A stretch of 64,000 bases of DNA from Agarophyton chilense. Taxonomy: Eukaryota > Rhodophyta > Florideophyceae > Gracilariales > Gracilariaceae. Under the pieces are notes generated by a model, which was given only the letters and a program-made list of their open reading frames with translations, made no database searches and was not told the DNA's origin. Shown here piece after piece: positions 1,798 to 51,075 of the stretch. The position numbers and the translations under genes were made by a program. The stretch lies in assembly GCA_030374765.1 (NCBI GenBank), contig JARGXX010000075.1, positions 372,001 through 436,000 of the forward strand, read 5' to 3'. Each line of letters starts with the position of its first letter. Positions within the stretch are counted from its first letter, which is position 1.

Positions 1798-3858
1798 CTA
1801 TTCCCATTCCATAACGGAGAGCCAAATTTGGTCAACCTCGTCGTCGAGATCTTCCCCGTGCGGGTCCGCTGACACAGCTCGTTCCCGAGAAAGCGGGGTT
1901 TGAGTGTGCGACACCTCAGTGTCTCGTCCGCGGCGGCGGGTGATCGTCGGCTCTGTAGGCGTTCCGGGTGCGGAGTTCTCCACACGACTCTCCCTAGACG
2001 GGTTTTGGTCATCTTTTCTGACGTCGTGCTCGGCTGGGTCGGCGGTGATGTCGTTACCCATACGCTGGGGTTGTGACTTCTCTGTAGCCGGCTCGGTCGG
2101 GCTCGCCGTCTCACTGTGAGAACTAGATTCCCTGTTAGGGCGACTGGCTGACGCCGAAACATCGTACTGCGAAGGAACTAAGTCCTCCTCCCCCTCCTTA
2201 GGCGGAAAGCCAGGAGGCTTGATTACCTCCGGTAGGGGAGTAACTCTGTAAGAGTTCGTTGACTGGGCCCTTGAGGGACCGGGCCCAGGTTCGGGAGTAT
2301 CGGAAGTTTCCAGTAGGTCGGTTAAACCACGTTCCGGGTGCGGAAGTATAACGGGGCGGGTGTTCCAATCTCCGCCTGACGGGTTAACTTCCGTTGAATC
2401 ATCCCCTGTGGAGGGCGTTGGTGCCGACAACACTTCCACATTTGGGTTGGGCGCTCGTGTGATGCGGTCCCTGGAGATCCGTTCGTGGCGGTTAGCGATA
2501 TCCAATACCACCGTGTCCGGGTCTACAGAAACCACCCGATAGGGTCCGTCCACAATTGGCGAAAGCTTGTGCCTACGTTTCTTTTCAGGATTGTAGTATT
2601 CCTTTCGAAGGAAGACGAAGTCGTCGGGCTCCACCTGAGGTAGAGGTTTGCGAACCCGATTGTCAAAGTCCTTCTTGTAGGCGCGTTGAGCTTTGTCCAT
2701 TGCTTTCCAAGCTATCGGCACCATCTTCGTAAGCCACTCCTTCCAGGCTTTTCGGTACAATCCCGGTGACGGGTACGTCGACAGCGTCGGTTGAGCCTCG
2801 ATGGCGACCGGCGGTGGTGTCCTCGACAGTACCAGTTCGAATGGGGATAACGATGTAACCCGATGTACCTGGGTGTTGTATGCATACGTGATAGCGTCTG
2901 TGTACAAGTCCCAATTTTTGGGGTGATCCGCAACATACGATCTCAAAGCGTTGAGTATCGTACGGTTAAACCTCTCCACCTGGCCATTCCCCTGAGGGTG
3001 ATACGTAGTAACAAATAAATTCCTTACATCAAGGATTCGACATACATCCTGAAAGAACTTTGATGCGAATTGCCCTCCGTTGTCGGATAACAACTGCACC
3101 GGCGGTCCATATACGAACACCCAATGGGTCAGGAACGCTTGCGCGACGGTAGCGGCGGTGATCCGCTTCAGCGGCACCGTTCTCGTTAGCTTAGAGAATC
3201 TGTCAGAAATGACAAGCAGATACCGATGACCTCGGGGCGTCCTGATAAACTCCCCTAGGATGTCTATGGCCACGAATTCGAGTGGAGCCCGTGCCGGGAA
3301 CAGCGTCAACTTCTTAGAGTGCTTCCGAAGTTTGACGTCATTCTTGGCGCAATTGGCGCAGGCCCGTCTGACGGCGTAACAATCGAATGCCATTGCCGGC
3401 CAGTAAAAGTCCCTTCTCAACGTGAGGTACAGTTTTCTTCCCCCGGGGTGGGCGCCAACCTTCACATAGTGAGTGAGGTATAATAACCTCTGTTGTAGGG
3501 TGTGCGGCACCACTATCCTCGGGCGAGGTCCAACGGTCCTGATTTGGTAACCCTGATCGTCGTCCTCGAAAGGTAACTGAAATCCTCCGTTGAGGCGAGC
3601 CCGAATCCGTGTACAGAATGGGTAGAGCTGTTGCTCGCGTATCATCTCCTCTGGAGAGATAGGTATAAAAGAGCCGGTCGGCGAATCCAGACTCTCGTTG
3701 ACGAGTATATCGTCACAAACATCATCCGTCAGCGGTTGAGCTCCTCCCTCGAGGTCCGATACCATAAAACATGGGATGTCATCGTCCTCGTAGGGTTCCG
3801 TTTCCGCTGTGGTTCCCAAGCGGGATAGTGCATCCGCCTGAGTGTTCAGCTCCTTTTC
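1798..3858 (-). CDS. Ty3/gypsy integrase (with RNase H tail in frame)
   Basis: The frame begins with the end of RNase H (KELNTQADALSRLG, the usual N..ADALSR closing motif), so it is the continuation of pol after a frame break, not an independent gene. Then come an HHCC zinc finger (HYVKVGAH ... CANC), and the integrase core with D in FVAIDILGEF, D in LLSDNGGQF and E in GQVERFN. A long Pro/Ser/Thr and charged C-terminal tail ends in SVMEWE. The protein would insert element cDNA into the host genome. The TTG codon at 3819 has no support as a start. The tail of about 230 residues after the core is longer than I would expect and carries no chromodomain, which lies in its own ORF downstream. Confidence 0.85.
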   Translation of the reverse strand, partial: EKELNTQADALSRLGTTAETEPYEDDDIPCFMVSDLEGGAQPLTDDVCDDILVNESLDSPTGSFIPISPEEMIREQQLYPFCTRIRARLNGGFQLPFEDDDQGYQIRTVGPRPRIVVPHTLQQRLLYLTHYVKVGAHPGGRKLYLTLRRDFYWPAMAFDCYAVRRACANCAKNDVKLRKHSKKLTLFPARAPLEFVAIDILGEFIRTPRGHRYLLVISDRFSKLTRTVPLKRITAATVAQAFLTHWVFVYGPPVQLLSDNGGQFASKFFQDVCRILDVRNLFVTTYHPQGNGQVERFNRTILNALRSYVADHPKNWDLYTDAITYAYNTQVHRVTSLSPFELVLSRTPPPVAIEAQPTLSTYPSPGLYRKAWKEWLTKMVPIAWKAMDKAQRAYKKDFDNRVRKPLPQVEPDDFVFLRKEYYNPEKKRRHKLSPIVDGPYRVVSVDPDTVVLDIANRHERISRDRITRAPNPNVEVLSAPTPSTGDDSTEVNPSGGDWNTRPVILPHPERGLTDLLETSDTPEPGPGPSRAQSTNSYRVTPLPEVIKPPGFPPKEGEEDLVPSQYDVSASASRPNRESSSHSETASPTEPATEKSQPQRMGNDITADPAEHDVRKDDQNPSRESRVENSAPGTPTEPTITRRRGRDTEVSHTQTPLSRERAVSADPHGEDLDDEVDQIWLSVMEWE

Positions 3859-3862
3859 TTGT
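3844..3862 (-). other. One-base frame disruption within RNase H
   Basis: In the RT frame the protein reads ...EILYKKRS and stops at 3846-3848. In the integrase frame the expected RNase H ending KELNTQADALSR begins at the same place. Shifting back one base at the A4 run (AAGAAAAGG on the minus strand) joins the two. Because the break is inside a folded domain and no strong slippery heptamer is present, a single-base deletion in a homopolymer, or a sequencing error, is the simplest reading. Confidence 0.75.
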
Positions 3863-6341
3863 ACAGGATCTCAAAGTCGAATTCCGACAGTCGGAGACGC
3901 CAGCGCATAAGGCGGCCCGAGGGTTCGGAGATCTCCAGGAGCCAACGCAAACATGTGTGGTCCGTATGGACTTTGAAACGAGTACCCATCAGATAGGGGC
4001 GAAGTGTAGCTAAGGACCACACATCGGCTAAACATTCTTTCTCGGAGACCGAGTAGTTCCTTTCATGGACATTCAGGGAACGTGACCAGTACCCAATAGG
4101 GTGACGTTCACCATCCTCAGAGGATTGGAACAGTGCACACCCTACTTGGTTTGCACTAGCATCGGTGTCCACTTCGTAAGGGAGCCCAGGATTGGGTAGA
4201 GCCAAGATTGGCGGTGATGTTACGGCATTCACCAGTGCCGTGAAGGCAGACGCTTCCGCGTCGCCAAAAGGTTCCAGTTCAACTGGTTGTCCCTTCGTCA
4301 GGAGCCTGTTGAGGGGGGTGGCAATATCCGCAAAGTTCGGGACGAATCGGCGATTCACGTTACACAGACCTAAGAAGGATCGCAACTCCGGTTGAGTTTT
4401 CGGGTGTTTTGCTTCCTTCAAGTATTTCACTCGTATTTCATCGATTGAAAGCTGTCCGGGATGGATGATATGACCCAGATACTTAACCGAATCGGTGAAA
4501 AACTCGCACTTCTTGAGTTTCAAGGTGATTCCCGCGTCGCGGAGTATCTTCATTACAACCCTGACATGTTCGAGGTGGTCATCCAGGTTGTTAGAGAAGA
4601 CAATAATGTCGTCTAAATACACTAGACACGTCCTCCACTTGAAGGGAGCCAACAGAATGTCTATCGCCCGTTGAAACGTTGCGGGGGCATTTGTCAACCC
4701 AAAAGGCATCCTCCGGAATCGGAAAAGTCCTTGATGACACACGAAAGCCGTTTTGTCTCGATCTTCCTCCCTAATAGGGACTTGCCAGTAGCCCGAATTG
4801 GCGTCGAGGGTAGAGAAAACAGTAGCGCTCCCAAGGGAGTCGATGTATTCGTCCATCCGAGGGATCGGGTACACATCCTTAATGGTTACCTCGTTGAGGC
4901 GTCTGTAATCGATGCAGAAACGCCACGATCCATCCGGTTTCGTAACTAACACCACTGGTGAGGCCCAAGCGGACTGGGCAGGTTCAATTACGCCCGATTT
5001 AAGAATCTTCTCCACCTGATATTTCTCCTCTTCCCGAGCTTTCGGTCCAGCCCTGTAAGGGTGTTGGGCAATAGGCCGAGTGTTCGGTAACAAGTCGATG
5101 CGGTGTTCTGTAATCCCAATAGTTCCAAGGGAACCATCCCACATGGGGGTAAATTCACGAAGCATGTGCCTCAGCTTCTCCCGATGAGATGCGGGTACAT
5201 GGTTGAGATCCCATTTCTCCAATTCCTGAACAGGATCCGTCTGGTCTGCTCCTGTGATAGGGGCCGTAACCTTCTGAGGTTTAAAGTGTTCAGCGTGTGG
5301 AGCTGCAGTCGTATGCTCACCGTCTTCCGCGATTTCGACAGTGTCCTCCCCCTCCTTAGGGTCCGCCACACCAAGGACCTCTGCGATAGAGATCTTTGTA
5401 GGTAGGACTGCATGCGGGTGTGGAAGAACAGAACCCAGGATCTGGTGTTTGACCAAATGCTGCGTTGTCTTTCCAAAGTTGGCTACCAAAACCTTGAAAG
5501 GTTTATCCGGTTCCACGGAGACAACCCCATTCGCAAGGGCGAGTTGACGCCGCGTATACAGAGACGGGTTCGGTTGTACCACATGCACACCAATTTGCTT
5601 GGTAACATCTGTGACCCAAACCTGGGTTTCTGGCGGGATAGCCACTGACTTCGCAACCTTTACCCGTGTAGACACAGGGTCCTTCTTCACAGATTCCTGC
5701 GCGACAGGGAGAGGAACGCGTGTTAGCGCTGCTCCCTGTAAGGGTTTACGAACGATTGGGATCCTAGACCCGTCTTCGAGTTCCACAGTTCTATTCCGAG
5801 GACGGATGGCTTCCACGAAGCGGTCGCAAAAGTCACAACCCAGTATGACTGGTGCTGCAAGTGACTTGCATACAATAAACTCTAGCTGAACGAGATAGGA
5901 GCCTAACCTCACCATGAGGGAAATTGTACCCAGTGTCCGTAGTGGGTTGTTGTTCGCATCGGCGATATCCAAACGTGGACCGGTACGAACTTGAACCCGG
6001 AGCAGCGGGGGTAATAATTCAACATGAATTAAGTTAGGAGCGGCTCCTGTATCCAGGACAGATATTTGACGAACCATAAACTGGTTGGACAGGCCGAAGT
6101 CGGCGAAGACTTTATAATTCCGCTTGGCCATTACCATAACTCGATCCGGAATACGGAGATTACGGGACCGTATCCACGGGCGACGGAGGACACTAAAGTA
6201 TCCCGAGTTAACGTCGGTGTCAGCCGTTCTCCCTGAAAGGATAGTCACAGCTGGGGAGCGAAGCTGGAGCGCCTCGGGCGTCTTCAATTCCAGCTTAGAA
6301 GACGCCCCTCCCGCAGGGGAGAATCCCAGGTTTAGTTTTTC
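3846..6341 (-). CDS. Ty3/gypsy pol: protease, reverse transcriptase, RNase H
   Basis: This frame has no convincing ATG near its beginning and is open back through the gag stop, so it is probably made by -1 frameshifting from gag. Domains in order: aspartic protease (VLDTGAAPN), a linker, reverse transcriptase (YRRLNEVTIKD, TLDANSGYWQ, FGLTNAPATFQ and the catalytic YLDD followed by IIVFS), then RNase H (VDTDASANQ, SEKECLA, VHTDH). All catalytic Asp and Glu residues I looked for are present, so this portion looks recently active. It copies element RNA into DNA inside the virus-like particle. The frame stops at 3846 just before the end of RNase H and continues one base out of frame into integrase. 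Confidence 0.9.
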   Translation of the reverse strand, partial: EKLNLGFSPAGGASSKLELKTPEALQLRSPAVTILSGRTADTDVNSGYFSVLRRPWIRSRNLRIPDRVMVMAKRNYKVFADFGLSNQFMVRQISVLDTGAAPNLIHVELLPPLLRVQVRTGPRLDIADANNNPLRTLGTISLMVRLGSYLVQLEFIVCKSLAAPVILGCDFCDRFVEAIRPRNRTVELEDGSRIPIVRKPLQGAALTRVPLPVAQESVKKDPVSTRVKVAKSVAIPPETQVWVTDVTKQIGVHVVQPNPSLYTRRQLALANGVVSVEPDKPFKVLVANFGKTTQHLVKHQILGSVLPHPHAVLPTKISIAEVLGVADPKEGEDTVEIAEDGEHTTAAPHAEHFKPQKVTAPITGADQTDPVQELEKWDLNHVPASHREKLRHMLREFTPMWDGSLGTIGITEHRIDLLPNTRPIAQHPYRAGPKAREEEKYQVEKILKSGVIEPAQSAWASPVVLVTKPDGSWRFCIDYRRLNEVTIKDVYPIPRMDEYIDSLGSATVFSTLDANSGYWQVPIREEDRDKTAFVCHQGLFRFRRMPFGLTNAPATFQRAIDILLAPFKWRTCLVYLDDIIVFSNNLDDHLEHVRVVMKILRDAGITLKLKKCEFFTDSVKYLGHIIHPGQLSIDEIRVKYLKEAKHPKTQPELRSFLGLCNVNRRFVPNFADIATPLNRLLTKGQPVELEPFGDAEASAFTALVNAVTSPPILALPNPGLPYEVDTDASANQVGCALFQSSEDGERHPIGYWSRSLNVHERNYSVSEKECLADVWSLATLRPYLMGTRFKVHTDHTCLRWLLEISEPSGRLMRWRLRLSEFDFEILYKKRS
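6276..6341 (-). promoter_or_regulatory. Candidate -1 programmed frameshift signal, gag to pol
   Basis: On the minus strand the last gag codons are AAA AAC TAA, preceded by G, giving the heptamer GAAAAAC at 6341-6335. The pol frame is the -1 frame and is open across this point. Thirteen bases after the heptamer is a 5-bp stem (CTCCC 6321-6317 with GGGAG 6312-6308). It is followed directly by a perfect 10-bp stem (GGGCGTCTTC 6307-6298 with GAAGACGCCC 6285-6276, 12-nt loop). The first base of the heptamer is G, so it is not the ideal XXXYYYZ form, and the first stem is slightly far away. Mechanism is inferred. Confidence 0.5.
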
Positions 6342-8362
6342 GAAGCGGACCCCACCGAATTCGGTGCAGCTGCCTCGAAGGGGACCGGTTGTTCCCCGTT
6401 CGCGGGTACAAGTTCTGTATCCCTGTTAGCAAGGTGAGCTCGGAGTATCCTCTGTTCCTCATAGGACCTACTCGGGACTCGAGCTTTCTCCTCAAGGGTC
6501 AGAGCCTCGTACTGAGCGATAATTCGTGAACCCTCCCGCAGGGAAAATGTGCAGTCTGGTGCTTTGTGACCACGGAGGTAACACAAATAGCAAATCAGCT
6601 CTGCCGGGTTCGGTTGTGGACCTGAATCCACGCGACGTGGTGCTGTATCCCTCCATCCGGGGCGAGAGAACCGAGCAGCGGTATTCGCAAAAGGTGGCGA
6701 TGCGGCTGGCACCCTCCGTCCTTGGGTGTAGAGCGCAGGGTCTTCATTCGTAGTCGGAGCGGATGTCGACGGCAACTCAGACGTACCCATAGAATCGGGG
6801 TTACTTCCCATGAAGTGAATGTTATCATTGACCCCCACAGGGGCAGGGCCTCCTGCGAGTGACAAAGACGAGTTACCTCCATCGGCGAGGAGTGCACTTG
6901 TCGGCCGACTCTTTCGGTTCTGCCGGGCACGGAGAGTATCCCCCTCAGCCTGGGCGTACTGAACCAGTTCCAAGTAGGTCAGCCTGCGCTTCTCTTCCCG
7001 ATGTCGGGCAACCAATGCCCTTATCGAGGGGTCCAAACCATCCACAAACATGGAGCATCTCTCGTAGGCGGGTAATACATTCCCGCATCGGTGAAACGCT
7101 TTATTCAAGCGAGTTGAATACACCGTTTCGGTTTCCATCGGCTTCTGCCGCGTATCCCTTAATGCAAGGATTGATTCCTGAATCGCATTTCCAGTAGCGT
7201 ATGACCTCAAGAGGTACTGCACCGCTTCGGGCCAGCACGTGACTCCCCCTTCCGAGGCTCGGGATGATCCACGGACGGAGTTGAACTGGTCTTCAGCCAT
7301 CCCCTTTGAGAAATAGGGTAATGCAAGATACGCTTGCGCTTCACTCATACCGAGGATGTCAGCCTCCTGGACAAACCTCGCAAGGAAATCGAGCACCAGA
7401 ATTGGGTCTGTTCCTGTGAACTCCCTCTTCTGTAGGGTGATGCTCAGCCTTTTGATGTAGTCCTTGACCTTACCCGTTCCGTGGGATGTTCGATCTCCCG
7501 AAGGGTTATCCAACCGGTAATAGTGGTACGATAGCAGCTTCCGATAGAGAGGATTCGTCGGCTTCAGCTCCCTTAATCCAAGGTGTTTCCTACCCTTCTT
7601 CCGGGTACGGATTGCCCCTAGAGAGGTGTAAGTAGCCTTCGACAGAGTCGCCCGGGATGACCGGCGTTCCTCTTCACTATCCGAAGATATGGAGGACGAA
7701 CTCGATGGCGAGCGATTGGGATCGGAATCCGATAAATCCTCTTGGAGGTGAACCCTCTTCTTGGACTTGCGGCGGTCCCGTTTAGCGGAGCGGTGTTCTT
7801 CGTCTTCCGAAACGTCGGGTTTATCCTTCGAGGCTCCTGTGTTTCCGTCCATATGGATAATGGCCTCGAGGGTGTCCAGCCGAGCTCGGAAGCGTTCCGC
7901 TTGCACGCGGTGTTCCTCCACGAGGCTCCGGTACTCCTGGATAAAGACCCCAGGGGTACCAAAGCTTTCCAAAAGGGAGTTCACATCCCTCCTCAGGGTA
8001 CGAAGGTCATCGGCGACTCCCCGTTCCTGGGCGTCCTCCACCTTGCAGCGGAGGGTACTAACCTCCTGAAGGAGCTCGACGTGAGCCGCGTTGGCGATAT
8101 CGATTCGAGTCTCCAGGCGCTGTAATTCAGGGTCGGCCCGACTTCGGGGTGCTGCTGAGGGGGTCTCCACCACTGGAGCTGGGCCCACAGCCACGACCTC
8201 TCGAGGACCTGAAACCACTGAGGGTGCTCTCCGAGTGTCCGGATCGATACCGGAATCGTTCCGACCTTCGGGAATTGAGCTCCTCGACCTAGGCGGGGCC
8301 GGGGGCACTGAATCCGCTTGACGGTTCGATCCAGTCCTGGAACCACGGGTAGGCGGCGACAT
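6332..8362 (-). CDS. Ty3/gypsy Gag polyprotein
   Basis: ATG at 8362 starts a 676-residue protein. The N-terminal third is basic and low in complexity, followed by a heptad-rich segment (around ELQRLETRIDIANAAHVELL), a Ser/Asp-rich linker (SDSDPNRSPSSSSS) and a central helical region typical of retrotransposon capsids (DPILVLDFLARFVQEADILGMS onward). A CX2CX4HX4C zinc knuckle (CYLCYLRGHKAPDC) lies near the C-terminus. Gag packages element RNA into virus-like particles in the cytoplasm. The frame is intact. The last sense codons form the candidate frameshift site into pol. Confidence 0.88.
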   Translation of the reverse strand: MSPPTRGSRTGSNRQADSVPPAPPRSRSSIPEGRNDSGIDPDTRRAPSVVSGPREVVAVGPAPVVETPSAAPRSRADPELQRLETRIDIANAAHVELLQEVSTLRCKVEDAQERGVADDLRTLRRDVNSLLESFGTPGVFIQEYRSLVEEHRVQAERFRARLDTLEAIIHMDGNTGASKDKPDVSEDEEHRSAKRDRRKSKKRVHLQEDLSDSDPNRSPSSSSSISSDSEEERRSSRATLSKATYTSLGAIRTRKKGRKHLGLRELKPTNPLYRKLLSYHYYRLDNPSGDRTSHGTGKVKDYIKRLSITLQKREFTGTDPILVLDFLARFVQEADILGMSEAQAYLALPYFSKGMAEDQFNSVRGSSRASEGGVTCWPEAVQYLLRSYATGNAIQESILALRDTRQKPMETETVYSTRLNKAFHRCGNVLPAYERCSMFVDGLDPSIRALVARHREEKRRLTYLELVQYAQAEGDTLRARQNRKSRPTSALLADGGNSSLSLAGGPAPVGVNDNIHFMGSNPDSMGTSELPSTSAPTTNEDPALYTQGRRVPAASPPFANTAARFSRPGWRDTAPRRVDSGPQPNPAELICYLCYLRGHKAPDCTFSLREGSRIIAQYEALTLEEKARVPSRSYEEQRILRAHLANRDTELVPANGEQPVPFEAAAPNSVGSASKN

Positions 8363-9486: not shown

Positions 9487-11561
9487 AAAGCACATAAAAC
9501 AAACAATAAAGAAGCGGTAAAAACGTGAAGGGGAGGATATTCTCAGAACAAGGGCCATAGCTCAAATAAGATTAGCACAGAGACTATGCTGCCCCTTAGT
9601 AGATAGCGTCCCTAGGATTTCTAGCGAACCTCAAGATGGTGGTGAGTTGGTTGTTGGTTGGCCTCTGCCTTTCTCGTGTTGACCATGTGCTCTTTACTGT
9701 GCCCGGAGGCATAGGAGCTACCGGACTGTAATGCTTACACCGTGGCGTGCTACAACATAAATTTCTAAAATGAACGATTAGAGTATTTGGTGGTCACATC
9801 GTACAGGTGTACAGTAGTTTGTTGCTACTATATTAATTCTAATTTCCAAGCATTCAATGAGATTAATCTTCTTATCAAACCGTTAGCGATTGCAGCACCA
9901 AGAATAGCCTACGAATGCCATATATCCTTTTCGATACTTTTTGATCATCCGATTAAAAGTACATCTCAAATGCTACAAGGAAACCGAGATGAGCCGGGAC
10001 GGGGCTGATCATGGTGGAGACATACGAGTCTTGGAGGGTTTCCAGGTTGAAGGAAATGGTGTTTTGTTTGTCATTTATTGCTTTGTCGCCTTGGTGATAG
10101 TCAGTGCGATCAGATGGTGCGTTTGGAGAGTCCGAACACCTAACGCTTGCGGGGAGTCATCCGTCGGAGATGTAGTTGCGGTGCCAATGCTCAACTTTAC
10201 AGCAAATTTCACATGGATATTTCATCGTCAGGCTGCTGCATTGACGGCGAGCGCCAAGCAGCGCCCGATTGTTGCTGCAGTAAGGCAGATATCAAACGCT
10301 TGTATCGAGGGCTTAGAATTGCTCCAATGCGATGTTTGGAGCACTGTGAGTGTCATCACATTGCTTGAGCACTGAGGCAATATTTTCGTACTTACCAGAC
10401 ATCACTAACACTTCCCTGAGGGCCTACTTAGAGTCTCAGTCTAAAGAGCAAAACGCATTCTTCACGATTTCTGCTCTTTATGGACTCCCAGACGAGAATT
10501 GGAAGATGGATATGTCAGAAAGGTCTCCTCGATCCAGAATGAAATCCCTATTATTCTCATACATATCAATTCTGCGCAGGCATGGGTTGAGTTGGGTAGT
10601 AAAGTCTACCGAGAAGACGGCCATATCGCACGTTATATCCGCATTAAGGCCCATATCGCTTTGTGTAAGACTGAAAACGGACGTTAAGTTTGCCCATGAA
10701 GACCTCAGGGAGAATTCTAATGATTTCAAGCCAAACGCCGTTCGCGTGTAAGAGGCTTTTGAGATGGTCGATATAGGACCTGGATCAAACTTGAAGCGTG
10801 GTTGCCGGAAATCAGAATTTCCCACAACCAGAACAGTACCCGAAATTTAAAACTGGCCTACGGAACAAAGGAAAACAACGCCAAGAAAGACTTAGTCGAA
10901 TCGTTCTGACCCACCATTCCCGTTTGGTCCTTACACGCAGCAAGAAATCCTGCAATGGATCGACGACTGCACAAAGGCTATAAATGAACAGAAGAACGAA
11001 ATGAAATCCGAGCTCGCCACTCTCGAGGCGGTTGGCGGTCTAGCACGGTCTATTTACTCTCAAAAAACAAAAAAGGTATCACTCCTAGCACGGGTAGGGG
11101 TCATGGGAATGGTCATGGTATTGTTCATGGTAACGGTGTAAATCGATTACGGGACCCTCAGAACAACTCCACCAGAAGCACTATTTTGTGTTCTCACTGT
11201 TTTAGACACCAGCTTTTTTATAGGCCACCGGAAGGTGTGCCAAATACAGCATGGCTGCTCCTGACCTCGCCGAGTGCATTGAATACTGCAGTGAACATAG
11301 AGTATTACACGAACTCTAACGAGAGAAAAGATTTCGTTAGAAGTTGAACGCAAGTTTCGCTACTGCGTGGGTACGAGTCTGGTGTTAGACTATCTACAAC
11401 AAATTTCAGGATAGAGTTATTTGTAATTTTGTGACTCTACGTGTAGGTACCTACGATAAGATGGTGAACAGCTAGTTTGGCTCAAATTCAATGTATGCAA
11501 CAGAAGGGTATTTAAGACCGAGACAAGACACTTTCCCGTCTCTCTCTTTCATCATCATTAC
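9487..11561. other. 2.1 kb without a recognisable gene; TATA-like box near its right end
   Basis: I see only short open frames, the longest 133 codons at 10350-10751 (+), with no known motif. Near the right end, TATTTAAG at 11509-11516 followed by CT-rich sequence (TTTCCCGTCTCTCTC) resembles the promoter and transcription-start region of an LTR. The intact copia element is inserted just after this, so the segment 11300-11561 may be the LTR or leader of the decayed Ty3-like element that resumes at 16066. This is inference. Confidence 0.35.
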
Positions 11562-11659
11562 TGACGGAGTGCACAAGATGTCTCACTTTACTTGGGTCGA
11601 CGTCGGCGTCTGGTGGACTATCTATTCCTTGGTCTGGAGGCAACGTGTACGGTCTGTCA
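11562..11659 (-). repeat. 3' LTR of copia element, 98 bp
   Basis: It starts TGACGGAG and ends GGTCTGTCA on the plus strand. It is identical to 15963-16060 except for A versus G in GGTCTGGAGG. Its minus-strand first bases, TGA, serve as the pol stop codon. The terminal motif TGTACGGTCTGTCAG is repeated at 11690-11704 just inside the element. Confidence 0.95.
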
Positions 11660-14600
11660 GTGTTGGCTGGGCGCAGCAGCATGAGGTCTTGTACGGTCTG
11701 TCAGTCCCCGGTGCTGCTGCGCTGATGGAGGGGCGGACGTGGTCATGTGCAGTCGCTTCAGATGGTTGTGGTGTGCCACGCGGTTTAGCGGCTTTGTGAA
11801 TGGGTCGGCCGAGTTTCGGGAGCTTTCGACGTGGGTTGGGGTGACAACTCCTCGCTGTCTGTTGTTGGCGATGTGATGATGGCGGATATCGATGAGTTTG
11901 CGTCGTTTTGTTGGCGCCGTGTTGTCGATGATTTGGAGGGTGCTGGAGTTGTCTATGAAAAGCGGAGAGGGTGTTATTGGGTCGATGCCGATGTCCTGGA
12001 GTAGGCGACGAAGCCAGTTGGTGACTTGGACCGTAGAAGAAGCGGCGATATACTCAGCTTCGCACGTGCTGAGTGCGGTGATAGATTGTTTCTTGGAAGA
12101 CCAGCAGATGGGGGATCCGTACAGTAGGTGTACAGAGCCGCTGTAGGAGCGACGGTTGGTTGCGTTGGCGTAGTCTGCGTCAGAGAAAGAGCAGAGTGGG
12201 TGTTTTGTGGGTTGGTTGCTGGTGCATAGGATGCCGAGGTTGCGGGTACCAGCTAGATACCGTAGGAGCCATTTTAATTTCTGCTGGTCGCTCCTAGTGG
12301 GATTTTGCATGGCACAGGCGAGGCAGTTGGTTGCAAAGGTAATGTCGGGCCGCGTTGAATCGGCGAGATAGCGCAGTGATCCTAAGGTGTGGCGGTATTC
12401 GGTTGTATCCTGTGAGGAGAGTGGCCGGTTTTGTATTGTGAGGAGCATTTTTTGGTTTGGCAGTGGGGTTGGTTTCGTGTTGCATGCGCTCATGTTGTTG
12501 GTCTGAAGGATGTCCCGTATAACGTGTGGTTGTGATATGTGTATGTTTCCGTTGTCCGTTCGATGGACGATCCAGTTCAGGTATTTGGTGGGGTGGCCCA
12601 GGCGCTTAATTTTGTACTTCTTGGACAGTTTGGTGTAAAGGTCGGTGATGAGCTGTGTGTCGGTCGCCGTGACTAGGAAGTCGTCCATACTAAGTGCGCA
12701 TATGAGTTTGCCGCGGTGGTTTTCGTGGAAGATGACGTTTTGGTCAGCTGAGGTGGTGTCGTAGCCATGGATCTTGAGGTAGTTTTGAAGGGCATTGGCG
12801 TAGATGAAAGCAGCTGGTGGTGTGCCATAGAGGTTACCGATGAGGCGTCCATATTTAACTGGATGAGCGAGGGTACCATCGAATAGCGGGGGCTGTCGGA
12901 CGTATACCGCGAAGGAGGTGTCGTAATTTTCATGGAGGTATGCCGAAGATATGTCGAAGTGTTCGATAGGCCATTTGTTTTGCGCATCTATCGCAAAGAT
13001 GTCTCGAATAGATGTCTTCTCGGCCATGTGGTTGGCGACGTTGGAATGGTCGTAGTGAATGCCCGGGAGCATGCGGTCGCCGCGCACTGTGCATCTGGCC
13101 TTGCGTTCTAGGACTTGGCCGTGCTCAGACCATTTGTACCGGTATGTCATTTTGAGTGGTATGGGTTTGGATGTAGTGGGTAGATCGGAGTTGTGTATCC
13201 ATTTGATCGTGCCGTTGTCGTCCAATTTTCGAAGTTCGGTGTTGTGTGCTGCAGACCATGCCTCTGCGTCGGGGAATCGTCCCGCATCTTTTCTGGAAGT
13301 TGGGTCGCGTGTAAAAGGGCTTATGGTTGGCGGGTTGGGGTTCTTTGTGAGGGCCCTGCGTACTGTGGGGTTTGAGACGGTGGGATCGGATTCTTAGTAG
13401 TATGGTATGAAGTCGACGGCTCTCAGTTTTTGTGTTTGATTTGTGCGGAGGTTCTGTACGACTATCATCGTGTCGGAGATGCTATACATATATCGAGCGG
13501 GCTCGGCGCGGGGCTCGAGTTTGTGTTTTTGTGATTTGTGTATGGGTGTATGGCCTAGTTGGCCGAAGGAAAAGATGCGGCTGGCGTTGGGCTGGCGGTT
13601 GTTCCAAAGGGTTGCAGGGGAGTTGTCTGTGGAGCGGTGATACATGATATTATACTTGAAGGCTGCGTCTCGTACGGCGTCCTCTCAGCAGTTGTCGGGG
13701 AGTTGGGAGTGATGGAGGTTCGCGCGGGCAGCGCGCATGAGTGTTTGGTTGATCCGTTCCGCGATGGAGTTTTCTTGGGGTTGATGTGGGGTCGTTGTGC
13801 GGTGTTCTATTCCGTATGTGCGGTACAGTTCAGATGCCTTCTTTGATAGGAATTCCTTGGCATTGTCGGTGCGGTATATTGCAGGAGTACGAGGGCCGCT
13901 GGTGTGGAGTATGGTCAGGAGTTCCCGGATGCAGGGAAGGACTTCAGAGCGTGATTTGAGGAAGTAGAGGATGAGGTATCTACTGTGGCTGTCTATGAAG
14001 CTGAGGAAATGTCGGTTTCCGTGGCGAGAGGGAGGGTTGATCGGGCCGCATGTGTCCGGGCTGAAGTAGTAGCCAAGGGCATAGTGGTGTGAGGTGAGGT
14101 GATGTGGGCGTGGTGTTTGTTTGCCGTATGCGCAGGATGTGTAGGTTAGGGGCGGCCGGTGGTTGCGGAGGTTTCCAGGCATGTTAGGGAGTATTTTCCT
14201 GTTTGCCATGACTTGTATGGCGCGCATCGGCGCGTGGTTTAACCGAAGGTGCCAGTCGTGGTATATAAGTTGGGATGGCGATGGTCGGTGGGTCGGGTCT
14301 GGTGGTGGGTAGTGTTTGTGGATTAGTGGTTCACGCCTCGCTGATAGGTAGGAGGATGGGCCATGGTGGCTGTGGATGTTCTTGGTGTAAAGTTTTGTTC
14401 GTGGGTGGGGTTGGTCGTTGGCGGTTGGATTCGTGTGCAGATGCGTTTGCTTTTTGGGTGGAGCAGAGCGTTTCGGGATTGGGATTGTGCGGCTTGTGCG
14501 GGCTACTGCTGTTTTTCGTGATCGCGAGAGGATGTAGGCGTTGTGGTTAGGGTTCCATGGAGCGACGCCGATATCTTTGGGGAGCCTGTCTTTCTTTAGT

Positions 14601-15958
14601 TGAATGATGGAGGCTCTAACGGGGTCGAAGGTTACTGCGCCTGATCGCACTGCGATGTCGTGGACAGACAGAAGGGTGTCGGGGACTCGAGGTGTGCACA
14701 CGGCGTGCAGTGTGAGGTTTTTACCCTTGCTGGTGAGGATCGCGGTCTGGCCGGCGTGCGTACAGGGCACGGACTGGTTAGTTGCTGTTTTCGTTTGCAT
14801 TGTTTGGCGTGTGGGATGTAGTAATGCGGAAGGGCTTGGGACATGTGTTGGGTGTGCTCCGGAATCCAAAATTAGCTTACCGTGGCTGTCAGAGTCCTCT
14901 GAGGCGTATTGCAATTCTTGCAGGGGGTTTTCGTTGTCGTTGTTTACGACATATAGGGCCCGAGCGCGCGGTTGTGGGCGTCGGACGCGGGCTGGTGCGC
15001 GTTCGCCTCTGTGACGCGGGTGGTTGGGGTCTCGGCATTCAGTGTCTGTATGGCGTGGGGAGCGCACGCCGAGGGCGATGTGGTGCTGGCACGGGTTCGC
15101 GTGGCGCTCTCTGTACCGTGGGGTGGTATGAGTCCGTTGGCGTTGGGTAGGAGTACGTGTTTGATCCCCGGTAAGGCCGTGGGCAGAGAGTCCGAAAGTG
15201 CGGGATTCTGTGTGTACATATTTGTGTATCATTTTGAATTGGCTGGCAAATTCTTGTGGGGTGCTGGGTTTTGTTGAGAAGAAGGTGATGTCAATCTGTG
15301 CGGTGTCTGGATTGTGTTTTAGTTCCTCGATCATGAAAGAGACTGTGAGGCTTTGGTCTGATATTCCCGGGTATCTGGCGGCTACCATACGAGCTCTGAT
15401 ATCTAGATGCTTCTCGAGATACTCCGTAATGTCCATCCCAGGTTCGAAGATGGTGTCTTCTGCTTCTTGTTTGAGGTATTTGTGGTTGTCTTGGTTTGCC
15501 GTGTTAAGATGGTTCGTTATGTACTGCAGGAGATCGTGTGGTGATGGATCGCTTTCTGGTGTTATCAGTAGGTTTAGGATATCTGTGGGAGTCGTGGATA
15601 GTATTTTTCCGACGAGCAGGTCTTCCTTGTTGTTGAATGATTTGAGTTCAGCAGCTGCCTGTGGTTTGGGTAAGTTGCTTGTGAGATGATCTAGGCACTC
15701 GTTGTGTCGTGCGTAGGCGCGTAGCGCTACGAGCCAAGGTCCGTAGTTTGCTTTTTCGAGTTGTGGGATTTCGGATTTGGAGTCGTTCGCCATGGTGTGA
15801 TGGTGTGTGGTGTTATCTGCTTGTAAGGTATACTTTTGTTCTTGGTAGACGAGTCTTAAGAGGTCCGCTGTTATGTCGACGAATGGTGCTTGCTCTTGGT
15901 GGCGGCGGAGTCGGCGGGATCGTGCGGATGTGGGATCGATTTGTGAGTGAGGGCCCAT
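11657..15958 (-). pseudogene. Copia Gag-Pol polyprotein, single frame with two nonsense codons
   Basis: One frame of 1,433 codons runs from ATG 15958 to TGA 11659-11657. It is interrupted by TGA at 13687-13685, where neighbouring residues DNC-EDAV suggest a lost Trp, and by TAA at 13396-13394. A more typical Gag start, MANDSKSEIPQL, is at 15793. Domains: Gag with a Cys/His knuckle; protease LDSGAHPTH; integrase WHLRLNH...SCAYGK, with the first Cys of CxxC replaced by Tyr, and core residues SPDTCG, YRTDNAKEF and NSIAERIN; RT with FDISSAYLH and SMDDFL; RNase H with FSDADYAN and STCEAEYIAA. Stop codons and the lost Cys mean this copy is probably not autonomous, although it is young by LTR identity. 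Confidence 0.92.
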
Positions 15959-15962
15959 AACC
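15951..15962 (-). promoter_or_regulatory. Primer-binding site complementary to initiator tRNA-Met anticodon arm
   Basis: Immediately after the 5' LTR the minus strand reads GGTTATGGGCCC. This is the exact complement of GGGCCCAUAACC, which spans the CAU anticodon loop and adjoining stem of eukaryotic initiator tRNA-Met. Half-tRNA priming of this kind is established for Drosophila copia. The ATG inside the site is also the first in-frame ATG of the gag-pol frame. Confidence 0.8.
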
Positions 15963-16060
15963 TGACGGAGTGCACAAGATGTCTCACTTTACTTGGGTCG
16001 ACGTCGGCGTCTGGTGGACTATCTATTCCTTGGTCTGGGGGCAACGTGTACGGTCTGTCA
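15963..16060 (-). repeat. 5' LTR of copia element, 98 bp
   Basis: This is the upstream LTR relative to element transcription, 98 bp, flanked on the right by the ATTAC target duplication. It is unusually short for a copia LTR; no clear TATA box is visible within it. Confidence 0.95.
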
Positions 16061-16065
16061 ATTAC

Positions 16066-44796: not shown

Positions 44797-46245
44797 TTAT
44801 TGAATCTTCGATGCGGGCTTCTTCGCTGGCGGTGTGGTAAGTCCGGTGTTGAACAAAATAAGCGAGAAGAGTAAAATCCAATGTCCGTAGAAGCCGAGAC
44901 CTCTGAAGGCGTCGATAGAAAGGTTGGACGCAAGCAACACAAATGATATGATGAAGTAATTAAGAGTGGCATGCGTTGCCAAGAACGAGATCGTGGAGTA
45001 CAACGGCATAAGCGGTCCTGGTGTCTCCCGGTCCGCCATCAAGAAACGCGGGCGGATAGTCCGTCGCACTTGTCGGTGAACAACGGTTGCAGCGGCCACC
45101 GAGAGGAAGAACATGTAGTAACCCGGATAAAAGCCGTGCCAGAACGCGGAGACCAGGTAGGTGAAATAAAGATTGACAGATGGTGGAGCACGGTCGTATA
45201 CGTAGCGGCGCAACCACAAATTGGTGGTTTTGTTCCAATTCTGAGAAGAAGTTCGCAGCGAACCAGAAGTTTCGTACTGCAATACATTGACATTCTCGAC
45301 GCGATCCCACTTCTCTGTACCAGTAGCCTTATCAAAACCGTTAAAGCCCAAGCCCGACATGCACGCCGAGCCCTCAGCAATCTTCCAACCAAAGTAGTAC
45401 TTGAATCGCACGGCAAGTAATCCCACCTCGATAGCGGCATATCGCGACAGGAAAGTTCCCGTTTTAAAAAAGTTTTTGTCGCTGAGCATTGCTGCGCAAG
45501 GAAACTTGAGTGCAATGGCAGTGTGTGATACAAAAAAGAAAAGACCCTGGAATAGCCTCCACAGACCGGGCAAATACGGTGGGGGTGCAACATTATTACC
45601 CGTCGCAAAGGCAACATAGTCCGAGTATTCGAAAGCAGGACCGATGACGACGTTTGCCGGGAAGAGAATGAAGCTCAAAAACTCTAAGAGTGATGGAATT
45701 TTGCTGACGGATCGCAACTTTTGTTTAGGTGTGGCATCGGGATCGACACCGTCCTGAACGTTGTACGCCAGACCCATGATCTTCTGGGTAGTGACCATGG
45801 CCACTAGTGTCCAATCCAGTGTCCAGCCGAGGTAGTCGGTGGCCTGTCTGTACAAGTGCCCGGCGGCGAGAATGAGCATGGCAACAACAGAGACGGTCTT
45901 GGCACTGCGGGGCCCAAGCAAGTGCATGAGCAGGTAGCAGAAGAGACAAGAGGACAAATTGAGCACTGCCTGATAGCCGTTTGCAAACTGGAGCATCCAG
46001 CCGCCGACGACGACCGAGAACACATGTCGGAACAGACCAGATGGGCCGGGCGGCAGTGCACGCCACGACAGAGCGACGGGGTAGGCTAGCAGCAAACAGA
46101 GGAAGAGGCGAATCTCGGCGGCGCTAGCCGCGGCAATGTCGGCGAGCACATGGACGCCCTTGAGCAGGGGCGCCGGCGTAAGGGCCTGGTCATAGGCGAT
46201 GGCGACATCACGGAGGGAAGCGAAAGCAGAAGCGACTAGCGCCAT
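44797..46245 (-). CDS. MBOAT-family lysophospholipid acyltransferase
   Basis: ATG at 46245 gives a 482-residue multi-pass membrane protein. The frame runs open further upstream, but that part is Arg/Ala-rich and lacks membrane character, so I prefer MALVASAFASL as the start. MBOAT signatures: SQNWNKTTNLWLRRYVYDR (about residues 334-352) and SAFWHGFYPGY, with the catalytic His near residue 370. These match the Ale1/LPCAT3/MBOAT5 type, which transfers acyl groups from acyl-CoA to lysophospholipids in the ER (Lands cycle remodelling). At least eight hydrophobic segments are visible. The C-terminus is Lys-rich (AKKPASKIQ). No intron is seen. The gene is head-to-head with HSP70 across a 735-bp region. 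Confidence 0.88.
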   Translation of the reverse strand: MALVASAFASLRDVAIAYDQALTPAPLLKGVHVLADIAAASAAEIRLFLCLLLAYPVALSWRALPPGPSGLFRHVFSVVVGGWMLQFANGYQAVLNLSSCLFCYLLMHLLGPRSAKTVSVVAMLILAAGHLYRQATDYLGWTLDWTLVAMVTTQKIMGLAYNVQDGVDPDATPKQKLRSVSKIPSLLEFLSFILFPANVVIGPAFEYSDYVAFATGNNVAPPPYLPGLWRLFQGLFFFVSHTAIALKFPCAAMLSDKNFFKTGTFLSRYAAIEVGLLAVRFKYYFGWKIAEGSACMSGLGFNGFDKATGTEKWDRVENVNVLQYETSGSLRTSSQNWNKTTNLWLRRYVYDRAPPSVNLYFTYLVSAFWHGFYPGYYMFFLSVAAATVVHRQVRRTIRPRFLMADRETPGPLMPLYSTISFLATHATLNYFIISFVLLASNLSIDAFRGLGFYGHWILLFSLILFNTGLTTPPAKKPASKIQ

Positions 46246-46980
46246 TGTAGGGGAGGGGACGCGCGCAAAGTGTGGGAGGTGATGAAAAGTGGAGAAGCAC
46301 GGGGGGGAAGGTGGGGGTTGGAGGAAGAAGAAGAAGCGTGGGGCTGAGGTAGGGCGCAACGCATCAAGTGGGCATATAAGCCAGTCTGCATACACGAATC
46401 GTACGGCGGTACGCAATGGCGCGGCGGAGCGCCAACCATGAGCGAAGTGTGTGATTCGTGATGGGATGGCGCTCACAGCGTGCGCGCCGCATCGAAGGCG
46501 ATCGGCACGGGCGTCAGCACGCCTGCGCGCAGCACGCCCAGTGGCGCCGCGCCAGGTGGCGCCGCACGTCCCAAACACTCCGCGAGGCGGCGGAAGCGCG
46601 CGCCACTGTGCTCTTCACAAGTGGCGCGCGTCTGAGCGACGCCGGGGCGGCGCGCACGCGCGATGTGCCCATTCAGATTGCAACACTTTGCGCGTTTCCA
46701 TTGGTTCGCCTTGCGCTCTAGAAGCGTCGCGCTGCGCGCTCACTGGCTCGTATGGCTGCTGTGCAATGGCGCATGTGCTCGACGGACGCCGCCGGTGGCC
46801 GCCACCTCCACCGTGATCCCGTCGCGCTCGCTATCCTCCGCCCTCCGTTACGCATTTATACCAAAGGTATAAGCGCGTCGCTTTCTTCGTCGCACGCCCC
46901 CGTCGCTGCATCGATTGCCTGAGGCATCCTTGTACCTCCTCAGACAGGTTTGGGCCCATTTTCGCAGACTGTCACTTGCT
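46246..46980. promoter_or_regulatory. 735-bp shared intergenic region between MBOAT and HSP70
   Basis: This GC-rich region separates two start codons facing away from each other. TATA-like sequences are seen at 46372-46379 for the minus gene (TTATATG on the minus strand) and near 46855 for the plus gene (ATTTATACC). The middle has many GCGC-rich words and CCAAT-like ATTGG near 46700. It probably holds promoters for both genes. I see no heat-shock element I would defend. Confidence 0.5.
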
Positions 46981-48990
46981 ATGCGCGCCTTAACTCGCTT
47001 CGGCGTCGCGCTTCGGCGCGCCACCGTGTCGCAGCGAAGGGGATTGTCCTCTGCCATCTCTGGCGATGTCATCGGCATTGATCTCGGCACCACCAATTCC
47101 TGCGTTTCTGTCATGGAAGGCAAGACCCCGCGTGTCATCGAGAACGCAGAGGGAGTGAGAACCACCCCCTCAGTGGTCGCCTTTACGCAGGATGGCGAGA
47201 AACTCGTTGGCATCCCCGCACGCCGCCAAGCAGTTACAAATCCTACCAACACCCTTTTTGCCACCAAGAGACTCATCGGTCGCCGCTACTCTGACAAAGA
47301 GTCCCAGGCCGACGTGTCTGCCATGCCGTACAAGATTATTCCCGGTCCGAACGGCGATGCTTGGGTCGAGGCCGGCGGTCAGAAATACTCTCCGAGCCAG
47401 GTCGGAGCCTTTGTCTTGCAAAAGATGAAGGAAACCGCTGAGAGCTTCTTGGGACGGAAGGTCAATCATGCCGTCATCACTGTCCCGGCCTATTTCAATG
47501 ACTCTCAGAGACAGGCCACTAAGGACGCTGGTAAGATTGCGGGCTTGGATGTTGCTCGAATCATTAACGAGCCTACCGCCGCTGCACTAGCGTACGGCTT
47601 GGAGAAGGCTGATGGAAAAATCGTCGCCGTCTATGACCTTGGCGGCGGTACCTTTGATGTCAGTATCCTCGAGATTTCTGGTGGTGTCTTCGAGGTCAAG
47701 GCCACCAACGGAGATACTCATCTCGGCGGTGAAGATTTCGACAACGTCTTGCTTGACAATCTTGTCTCCGAGTTCAAGAAGGATCAGGGTATCGATCTTT
47801 CAAAGGACCGTCTCGCTCTGCAACGATTGCGTGAAGCAGCTGAAAAGGCCAAGATTGAGCTTTCTTCTACCATGCAAACCGATATAAACCTTCCCTTCAT
47901 TACGGCCGATGCAAGTGGACCAAAGCACATGAACATGAAGCTCACACGCGCCAAATACGAGTCACTTGTCGACCCGCTCGTCAGACGTACCTTGGACCCC
48001 ATGAAAAACTGCCTCAAAGACGCTGGTGTTTCCAAAAAAGAAATCGGCGAGGTTCTCATGGTGGGAGGTATGACTCGCGTGCCGCGCGTACAGGAGGTAG
48101 TGAAAGACTTCTTTGGAAGAGATCCATCAAAGAGCGTGAACCCTGATGAGGTTGTTGCGATGGGCGCCGCCGTTCAGGGTGGTGTACTGCGAGGCGATGT
48201 GAAGGATATCCTGCTGCTTGATGTCACACCATTGTCTCTGGGTCTGGAAACATTAGGCGGAGTTTTCACGAGATTGATTAACAGGAACACCACTATTCCC
48301 ACCAAGAAGTCACAAGTGTTCTCGACTGCCGCGGACAATCAAACCCAGGTCGGTATCAAGGTTCTCCAAGGCGAGCGAGAAATGGCTGTTGACAACAAGA
48401 TGTTGGGTCAGTTCGATCTCGTAGGTATTCCACCGGCACCAAGAGGCGTACCGCAAATTGATGTCGTCTTTGATATTGATGCAAATGGTATTCTTCACGT
48501 CTCCGCACGTGACAAGGCTACTAGCAAAGAACAAAGTATTCGAATCCAAAGCTCTGGCGGCTTGTCGGATGGCGACATCGATGAAATGGTTAAGAACGCT
48601 GAATCCTTCGCTGCTGCCGATAAGGAACGCCGCGAGTCCATTGAGGCGAAAAATGATGCGGACAGTTTGTTGTACAGCACTGAAAAGAGCTTCAATGAAC
48701 ACAAGGATAAGTTGAACGCGGAACAGATTGCCGATGTCGAAGCTGCGATGACGGATTTGCGCTCAGAACTTGACAATGAAGGCGCAAGTGCTTCAGACAT
48801 CAAGGCGAAAACAGAGGCATTGTCTAAGGCTGCCATGTCAATAGGGGAAGCAATGTATAAGGCTTCCCAGGAAGCGAATGCGCAGAGAGATTCTGCTTCG
48901 GAGTCGTCCTCAACAACAGAGGGAGATCCCAAATCTGAGAGTGACTCGGACAAGGAGCCTGAAAAGGACAAGAAGGCTGGCGGCGCGTAA
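46981..48990 (+). CDS. HSPA9: Mitochondrial HSP70 chaperone
   Basis: ATG at 46981 gives 669 residues. The first 25 ([20 protein letters not shown]) are Arg-rich without acidic residues, a typical mitochondrial presequence. The mature protein starts with [18 protein letters not shown], the ATPase phosphate loop of the DnaK type. Other family signatures are [29 protein letters not shown] and [16 protein letters not shown]. The substrate-binding domain follows ([15 protein letters not shown]). The tail is acidic, ending DKKAGGA. It drives protein import and folding in the matrix with GrpE and J partners. Sequence type is alpha-proteobacterial/mitochondrial rather than cytosolic (no EEVD). An upstream in-frame TTG at 46915 is not needed. 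Confidence 0.95.
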
Positions 48991-49226
48991 ATGATAACTT
49001 GTACACCGTATCGTTTTGATCTATAAAGAAAGAAAACCCCAACGCTTCGTGCTGGATTGTAATTGAGGTGATGGTCGAGAGTCGCTTTGTGGGCACTGAG
49101 AGGTAAAGGCGTAAGCATGGCATTGATTTGGTGATGGATAGGTTTACTGACGGGAGGGTGCAATGCAGTTGGATGACAAACAGGGCAGTAGTTGCATCGT
49201 GACTCTTGATAAAACGCTTTAACGCG

Positions 49227-50510: not shown

Positions 50511-51075
50511 TTTGTCGAGCCTGCAGCTTGCTACGGCTGTTCGGCCTGCACCGACCGTGGGCCTCTGCGTCTCATTGCCACTTTGAGTGAAAGTGTGTCG
50601 GCGGCTGCTGCTGAAGACAGCCGTTCAACATGTATCTATCTACCTTCGTACGTATAGTGGCACACGTGCAGAGCGCCAAAATTTGGTGCGGTTTGGTGTT
50701 CATCAGCACGGCGATTTGCGCAACTCTCCGAAAGTTGGAATTGTGCGCGCGCGCGGGAGCGAATGTGAAGCCCCGCCAAACGCGCGCTGCATCGCTGTCG
50801 GGCCTGTTGCTCGAAGAGGAAGCGGTTAAACGCCCCGCACTTGACGCCTCCCCGCTACCCACTGCCCGTGCCTTCGGCTTTCCACAGCTGTTCCGAGCCA
50901 CCCTCTGTACTTTACGAAAACTCTTTTCGACCAGGCATGCACCTCATGCCTGGCGGGCTGCGCTCGCAACGCTGACGAAAAGCTACTCGGTTGCTTTTGC
51001 CCCCGCCTTTTCCACCACCTTTCTTCCTCCGAGCGCGTATCTTTCTTTGGCTGCATTTTCAAGTTCTTGCTTCAA
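50511..51075. promoter_or_regulatory. 565-bp shared region between Bin3-type gene and TBC1D23
   Basis: This lies between two divergent start codons. It contains a GCGCGCGCGC run near 50742. I see no strong TATA box. The open frame at 50630-51079 (+) appears to be a chance frame in the TBC1D23 5' region. Confidence 0.45.

What the first reader, a model, noticed from the sequence alone, without database searches (positions are those of the whole stretch)
11562..16060. Copia element coded from LTR to LTR with no untranslated interior
The single gag-pol frame can begin at ATG 15958, four bases after the 5' LTR, and its stop TGA is the first three bases of the 3' LTR. A 1,433-codon frame fills the whole internal region. 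Most copia elements have a leader, and a polypurine tract outside the coding frame. If the first ATG is used, the leader lies wholly in the 98-bp LTR. This would be a very compact retrotransposon.
Basis: seen in the sequence. Interest (0 to 1): 0.72.

Follow-up and report, generated by a model that had tools for sequence, protein, structure and literature searches.

The report
Copia element with unequal repeats
A small, broken jumping gene (copia retrotransposon) belongs to a large group in its host whose main protein seems to start before the usual start codon and whose two end repeats seem to be made unequal each time an element copies itself.

Summary
The element is real: 98-bp LTRs, 5-bp target duplication, copia domains. 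Its frame is not intact: TGA and TAA interrupt it, and all 10 copies found are broken. The ATG four bases after the 5' LTR lies in the primer binding site and is the complement of the initiator-tRNA anticodon. Yet a coding leader is plausible. In 13 related families of the same genome the stretch before the gag AUG is conserved as protein, and in 16 families it begins at one ACG (35 of 37 copies; the other two carry ATG there), with A at -3 in 15 of 16. This suggests a non-AUG start of a long Gag. The window family has ATC there and the PBS ATG in frame just upstream; its own evidence is weak. The 3' end is explained by a conserved hairpin, not by protein. Its loop holds CCGGGGAC and a copy of the LTR start, 44 bp before the 3' LTR. 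In seven families the 5' LTR follows this loop copy, not the 3' LTR, at 18 of 19 informative positions. So plus-strand DNA probably starts in the loop and jumps the hairpin arm in each cycle. No bench test exists; the host is unidentified.

The parts
16061..16065 (-). 5' copy of the target-site duplication, GTAAT
15963..16060 (-). 5' LTR, 98 bp
15951..15962 (-). Primer binding site GGTTATGGGCCC, exact complement of nt 29-40 of three identical host tRNA-Met(CAT) genes
15956..15958 (-). ATG inside the PBS, in frame with gag; possible start of a long Gag
   Evidence: use by ribosomes is inferred
15938..15940 (-). ATC codon that falls on the profile column where the other families have ACG
15791..15793 (-). 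Gag AUG of MANDSK, in the context CACCATGG
13688..15958 (-). First open piece, 757 codons: leader extension, gag, protease, integrase core (rve)
   Evidence: protease by eye from a DSGA motif
13685..13687 (-). In-frame TGA stop
13397..13684 (-). Second open piece, 96 codons: SH3-like region, below Pfam's curated cut-off
13394..13396 (-). In-frame TAA stop
11660..13393 (-). Third open piece, 578 codons: reverse transcriptase (RVT_2), RNase H region, non-conserved tail
   Evidence: RNase H by position and eye
11712..11722 (-). Hairpin left arm GCGCAGCAGCA
11704..11711 (-). CCGGGGAC, likely plus-strand primer, in the hairpin loop
   Evidence: function inferred
11690..11703 (-). Copy of the LTR start, TGACAGACCGTACA, next to the tract
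11671..11681 (-). Hairpin right arm TGCTGCTGCGC
11562..11659 (-). 3' LTR, 98 bp; its first three bases close the frame
11557..11561 (-). 3' copy of the target-site duplication, GTAAT

Best explanation
The element is a decayed copy of a Ty1/copia retrotransposon that primes minus-strand DNA with the 5' half of initiator tRNA. It belongs to a group of at least 17 families in this genome (my grouping by eye) with two unusual control regions. (1) Gag is made in two forms: a long one from a start upstream of the gag AUG and a short one from the AUG by leaky scanning. In 16 families the upstream start is an ACG. In the window family it is probably the PBS AUG, which lies in frame 18 nt before the former ACG site, now ATC. 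(2) Plus-strand DNA starts after CCGGGGAC in a hairpin loop, copies the LTR-start repeat next to it (TGTCAAACA in relatives), then re-pairs with the same repeat at U3 about 44 nt on and leaves out the hairpin's right arm. The new 5' LTR is a shortened chimera; the 3' end keeps the hairpin. Shown by sequence: PBS match, broken frames, coding signature of the leader in relatives, the fixed ACG, paired changes in the hairpin, 5'/3' LTR differences. Inferred: use of ACG or of the PBS AUG by ribosomes, leaky scanning, the priming site, and when and why the jump happens.
For: PBS complementary to host tRNA-Met(CAT) nt 29-40; 386 exact PBS sites in the genome against 2 for the reversed pattern. Leader coding in 13 families: mismatch 0.394/0.336/0.543 by codon position (0 of 5000 label permutations as high), 1 gag-frame stop in 682 codons against 11 and 13 in 669 in the other frames, 7 in 327 between PBS and ACG. 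ACG in 35 of 37 copies, ATG in the other two (L066, L082), A at -3 in 15 of 16 families, though ACG is only 26 of 202 in-frame Thr codons downstream (L082 register corrected). The two families whose PBS ATG is in frame and open to the site (window, O) are the one without ACG and the one without A at -3 (O is one copy). Hairpin: 84.4% of cells paired, 8 of 15 pairs with changes on both sides, 0 of 500 shuffles. 5' LTR like the loop copy at 18 of 19 informative positions in 7 families.
Against: Window family: extension alone scores 6.1 bits, reached by 23 of 2000 codon shuffles; its leader shows no codon-position bias (7/9/7 singleton sites, 1/2/0 shared). 7 of 16 internal leader gaps in the frame-blind alignment are not multiples of three. 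RNAalifold found no common fold on the hairpin alignment, 'further pair types' did not exceed shuffles (366 of 500), and L043 and L121 fold otherwise alone. 6 of 22 RT loci lack GGGGACTG. One informative LTR position (L078) goes against the loop copy, and in window copy L012 the 5' LTR follows the 3' LTR at base 13. No expression or cDNA data.
Confidence: 0.7

Rival explanations
1. In the window family the open leader is coincidence: the ATG is there only because the PBS needs it, and Gag starts only at MANDSK.
For: The PBS forces the ATG; the PBS ATG lies in every frame relative to gag among families; weak profile score and no codon-position bias in the family's own leader.
Against: Gag-frame translation is the best-scoring of the window leader's frames and 23 of 2000 shuffles reach it; the leader is stop-free in 8 of 10 copies; homologous position is coding in 13 families.
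Confidence: 0.3
2. The fixed ACG and the conserved leader are an RNA signal (packaging, dimer or splice element), not a start codon and coding region.
For: Leaders of LTR elements often hold such signals (general knowledge); ACG is fixed at all three bases.
Against: Third codon positions vary most downstream of it, stops are rare in the gag frame only and frequent just upstream; distance to the PBS varies from 25 to 171 nt; two copies read ATG at the site.
Confidence: 0.12
3. The 5' LTR is shortened after synthesis: recombination or annealing between the two LTR-start repeats in finished cDNA removes the hairpin arm.
For: It gives the same final sequence; repeats of about 7-14 nt flank the missing stretch.
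Against: The short 5' LTR is seen in 27 of 27 elements read, 26 with matching target duplications, which is easier for a step built into synthesis at a conserved hairpin.
Confidence: 0.2
4. Plus-strand priming is ordinary and directly before the 3' LTR; the 3' LTR start has merely mutated in many copies and TG is restored by integrase or untemplated addition.
For: Purines such as GAAAA stand just before U3 in several families.
Against: The altered 3' starts are shared within families (A, B, C, E, K), the tract and LTR-start copy are invariant in 15 of 15 representatives, and in family G position 3 also follows the loop copy.
Confidence: 0.08

Closest known systems
Drosophila copia and genus Hemivirus (Pseudoviridae), half-tRNA priming
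   Same: Short segment of initiator tRNA as primer; PBS to the anticodon region directly after the 5' LTR (PMC5371799 and PMC8515867, passages; the exact copia cut site is recalled).
   Different: Neither source passage mentions a non-AUG Gag start or unequal LTRs.
[quoted passage not shown]
   Same: Left arm borders the PPT; the loop holds PPT and LTR start; right arm follows.
   Different: There the right arm lies inside the 3' LTR and so in both LTRs; here it is absent from the 5' LTR.
Murine leukaemia virus long Gag (CUG start) and Sendai C' (ACG start) (PMC3542737, passages)
   Same: N-terminal extension from an in-frame near-cognate codon upstream of the AUG, with leaky scanning.
   Different: Unrelated sequences; here a copia lineage, ACG in 16 families, not shown by experiment.
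Hepadnavirus plus-strand primer translocation DR1 to DR2 (PMC5408681, passages)
   Same: Plus-strand start made at one repeat and used at another.
   Different: Here the homology would be in the first DNA copied, not in the RNA primer, and the distance is about 44 nt.
GalEa-like copia elements, including red-algal ones (PMC3587641, passages)
   Same: Copia elements with one primer from tRNA-Met.
   Different: Their PBS is complementary to the 3' end of tRNA-Met; this one is to nt 29-40.

Membership tests
Ty1/copia retrotransposon (Pseudoviridae) | Integrase upstream of reverse transcriptase; copia-type RT (RVT_2) | tested here: met
   rve in the first piece, RVT_2 (6.1e-39) in the third
Ty1/copia retrotransposon (Pseudoviridae) | Two LTRs with TG...CA ends and a short target duplication | tested here: met
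   98-bp LTRs, GTAAT; 5-bp duplications read in the other copies, L013 3' end was offset in the script
Ty1/copia retrotransposon (Pseudoviridae) | LTRs identical at synthesis | tested here: inconclusive
   Window LTRs 97/98 alike, but in seven related families the LTR starts differ systematically
Ty1/copia retrotransposon (Pseudoviridae) | PPT upstream of the 3' LTR | tested here: inconclusive
   A conserved G-rich tract exists 44 nt upstream, not adjacent; priming not testable here
Hemivirus-type copia | Primer is a short segment of tRNA, PBS complementary to its internal region | tested here: met
   12 nt exact to nt 29-40 of host tRNA-Met(CAT); primer use itself not testable
[quoted passage not shown]
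   PBS lies on nt 29-40; GalEa feature from PMC3587641 passages
Sirevirus | Additional env-like gene after gag-pol, plant host | tested here: not met
   No room: the frame reaches the 3' LTR; host not identified
Non-AUG initiated Gag extension | Ribosomes initiate at an upstream in-frame near-cognate codon | not testable with these tools
   Only sequence conservation

The most novel reading that the evidence does not exclude
This copia lineage has permanently unequal LTRs: in every replication cycle plus-strand DNA starts in a hairpin loop and must jump about 44 nt over the hairpin arm to complete U3, so the 5' LTR is always a fresh deletion derivative of the 3' end. In the window family the primer binding site also serves as Gag start codon, so one 12-nt sequence meets initiator tRNA twice, as primer site and as start codon.
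Probability: 0.5. Interest if true: 0.85.

Novelty: new variant of a known kind. Interest (0 to 1): 0.7.

Why it matters
LTR elements are taken to have two LTRs made identical by reverse transcription, and LTR dating and annotation rest on this. A lineage that rebuilds its 5' LTR through an internal jump would be a natural system for template switching at a hairpin and would be mis-annotated by standard tools. An ACG kept over 16 divergent families would be a clear case of two Gag forms in a retrotransposon. It also shows a constraint on any element primed by half of initiator tRNA: its PBS brings an AUG into the leader, which must be tolerated, mutated (ACG or AAG in families A in part, D, F and I) or used.

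Tried and rejected
Read-through or a changed genetic code for the TGA and TAA: not pursued; other copies break at other places, so decay is the simple reading. PPT motif in other collections: 4 viral contigs and 12 bacterial genome contigs hold the letters; tblastn with the window RT piece gave nothing better than E 0.99 in these 16, so they are taken as chance. PDB sequence search with the third piece: no match at E 0.01. A tree of 32 RT rows left the order of the window lineage, the N/P/Q lineage and the rest unresolved, so whether ACG was ancestral to the window family is open. Papers: the listings and abstract starts showed no title or abstract start on a non-AUG Gag start in a copia element or a displaced PPT with unequal LTRs; these cover open-licence PMC papers only, mostly the best 20 of each search, and I read only the passages named. 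Host identity was not established.
Full report
1. What is there. The window is G000:C75:372001-436000 of a 79.8-Mb genome in 135 contigs. The element lies at 16060..11562 on the minus strand: LTRs of 98 bp, 97 of 98 identical, flanked by GTAAT. The frame from ATG 15958 reaches the TGA at the start of the 3' LTR only if an in-frame TGA (13687-13685) and TAA (13396-13394) are ignored. The three open pieces match rve (1.9e-11), an SH3-like domain below its curated cut-off, and RVT_2 (6.1e-39).

2. Copies. The LTR query gave 20 matches, all 20 candidates scored, which pair into 10 elements with two LTRs; the tool calls such counts lower bounds. From the PBS ATG, the first in-frame stop comes by codon 758 in 10 of 10 copies. 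The PBS ATG is kept in 10 of 10; the 165-nt leader is in frame and stop-free in 8 of 10; L018 has a 7-bp deletion and L017 a deletion that begins there. So the leader claim holds for most copies and the intact-frame claim for none.

3. The ATG is in the primer binding site. GGTTATGGGCCC directly follows the LTR and is the exact complement of nt 29-40 of three identical host tRNA-Met(CAT) genes. The genome holds 386 exact sites against 2 for the reversed pattern. Every element with this PBS carries an ATG there.

4. Relatives show a coding leader. An RT search scored 141 matches of 907 candidates. Five-prime fragments of 52 loci were fetched. A profile of leader extension plus gag start, made from 11 of them, was run on all loci then held. 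Of the 52 fragments 37 gave a gag start or extension; 15 gave none. I grouped the 37 by eye into 16 families (A to P), not by formal clustering. In 13 of these families (N, O, P not included), aligned without regard to frame, the stretch between the ACG and the gag AUG mismatches at 0.394, 0.336 and 0.543 at codon positions 1, 2 and 3 (0 of 5000 permutations as high). It has 1 gag-frame stop in 682 codons, against 11 and 13 in 669 in the other frames; between PBS and ACG the gag frame has 7 stops in 327 codons, in 7 of 13 families. Of 16 internal gaps 9 are multiples of three and 7 are not. A first count over the last 45 codons of 14 families, window included, gave stops in 2 families against 7 and 8.

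5. The ACG. In 35 of 37 copies the extension begins with ACG. In the copies listed it stands on one profile column, apart from the frameshifted secondary hits printed there. A is at -3 in 15 of 16 families (one copy taken per family) and A or G at +4 (8 and 8). The other two copies read ATG: L066, and L082, which one search printed one base out of register and one search shows as ATG followed by a frameshift. I located the sites by short strings picked. ACG is 26 of 202 in-frame Thr codons downstream. An in-frame AUG between PBS and ACG occurs in 1 of 13 families (L062, with a stop after it), and one in-frame AUG between ACG and gag AUG in 1 of 13 (L081). A fixed wobble base, a strong context and coding that begins there fit a start codon. 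Near-cognate starts with leaky scanning are described for MLV Gag (CUG) and Sendai C' (ACG) (PMC3542737, passages).

6. The window family. On that column it has ATC (CAA ATC GAT; AAA ATC GAT in L012) in the ten copies of the alignment, and the PBS ATG is in frame 18 nt upstream. Among the 37 other copies a PBS ATG in frame and open to the site is found in L100 (family O, one copy) and in L083 (family G, whose two other copies lack it). L100 is the family whose ACG lacks A at -3. So the two families with an open in-frame PBS AUG are those with a lost or weak ACG; this is a small sample, but it fits a swap of start codons. Against it, the window extension alone scores 6.1 bits with the relatives' extension profile, reached by 23 of 2000 codon shuffles, while the other window frames reported score 2.0 or less. 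Variable sites in the family's leader are flat over codon positions (singletons 7/9/7, shared 1/2/0), compared with 108/79/112 and 12/8/20 in gag to integrase. Decay after insertion explains part of this. A chance open leader stays a rival at 0.3.

7. The 3' end. Past RNase H the frame crosses a conserved element that families read in three different frames, so its openness is not protein conservation. The element is a hairpin. Its left arm ends at CCGGGGAC, the loop goes on with a copy of the LTR start (TGTCAAACA in relatives, TGACAGACCGTACA here), and the right arm follows. The 3' LTR starts 40-48 nt after the tract in relatives and 44 nt after it here. ACCGGGGACTG is invariant in 15 of 15 representatives. 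On these 15, 84.4% of cells pair, 8 of 15 pairs have changes on both sides, and 0 of 500 shuffles reach the covariation score; slid versions pair at most 45.8%; 'further pair types' does not exceed shuffles (366 of 500). Against it, RNAalifold predicted no pairs on the alignment, and of 34 elements folded singly L043 and L121 took other folds. Of 22 RT loci, window included, 16 hold GGGGACTG; L039, L044, L045, L046, L050 and L051 do not. CCGGGGACTGTCAAAC occurs 70 times in the genome, its reversed control 0 times.

8. The 5' LTR follows the loop. Of 32 elements with both ends held, the script read 27; 5 were dropped because it did not locate the 3' LTR (L066, L075, L076, L081, L083). In the 27, target duplications agree within one mismatch in 26; the 5' LTR starts TG in 25, the 3' LTR in 12. 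At positions 1-3, in elements with a good duplication and a loop copy, 19 places differ between loop copy and 3' LTR; the 5' LTR follows the loop at 18 and the 3' LTR at one (L078, where the loop copy itself reads AGTC). Families A, B, C, E, G, K and L contribute. In family G position 3 is involved (L086 by script; L083 and L065, the latter without a loop copy), which speaks against mere addition of TG. Of the five dropped, one search shows L081 and L083 in agreement with the loop, L075 and L076 uninformative, L066 without data. In the window family loop and 3' LTR start alike, so little can be read: L014 (5' base 15 like the loop) and L018 (3' LTR alone differs, base 6) agree; L012 (loop alone differs, base 13) does not; each could be a later mutation.

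9. Mechanism. DNA started after CCGGGGAC would copy TGTCAAACA, stall at the stem and re-pair with TCAAACA at U3. After the usual second transfer only the 5' LTR carries the jump, and the 3' end keeps the hairpin and its own boundary, as seen. A jump in minus-strand synthesis would remove the hairpin from the 3' end of progeny, which is not seen where the motif is present. Bousios and colleagues (PMC2829016, section 8) describe an inverted repeat at the PPT/3' LTR junction in Sireviruses and about half of classic copia elements, with the right arm inside the 3' LTR. This hairpin has that geometry; what differs is that the right arm is missing from the 5' LTR. Hepadnavirus primer translocation (PMC5408681, passages) is the nearest functional parallel.

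10. PBS drift. Of the 37 relatives only L082 has an exact PBS; most have one mismatch. GGTTACGGGCCC, which removes the ATG, is found in L052, L057, L063, L078, L079 and L084, and family I has AAG or AAA there. PMC5371799 (passages) reports that in Ty1 and Ty3 the PBS of progeny is not copied from the primer tRNA, which would let such changes persist.

11. Verdict. The finding as written is partly right. The element is of a known class and broken. Following it led to two group-wide features, a fixed ACG start and unequal LTRs made by a jump, both supported by comparison and untested by experiment.

Noticed in passing
window 1801-6287 (-): A second retroelement, gypsy-like: RVT_1 and RNase H in one open frame, Integrase_H2C2 and rve in the next; the frame at 6335-8362 had no Pfam match.
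   Followed up: no
window 44800-56555: Host genes: MBOAT acyltransferase, Hsp70, Bin3-type methyltransferase, Rab-GAP TBC, DnaJ with HEAT repeats.
   Followed up: no
G000:C27:496431-522695 and G000:C75:1203370-1241907: PBS sites recur at near-exact spacing (about 3750 bp, eight sites; about 5900 then 5206 bp, eight sites), as in tandem arrays of retroelements.
   Followed up: no
G000 contigs C40-C59, C122, C126 (rows): Many near-identical RT copies share the same internal stops, so broken copies seem to have been amplified by duplication rather than transposition.
   Followed up: no
L052, L057, L063, L078, L079, L084, L071, L076, L085 (PBS): The PBS ATG is changed to ACG, AAG or AAA in several families, which removes an upstream AUG at the cost of a primer mismatch.
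   Followed up: partly
L040 (about 3053 in element orientation): A more distant lineage (Q) has GAAGGGGACTGTCAAACC in a different hairpin and GTCAAACC again downstream; its 5' LTR was not read.
   Followed up: no
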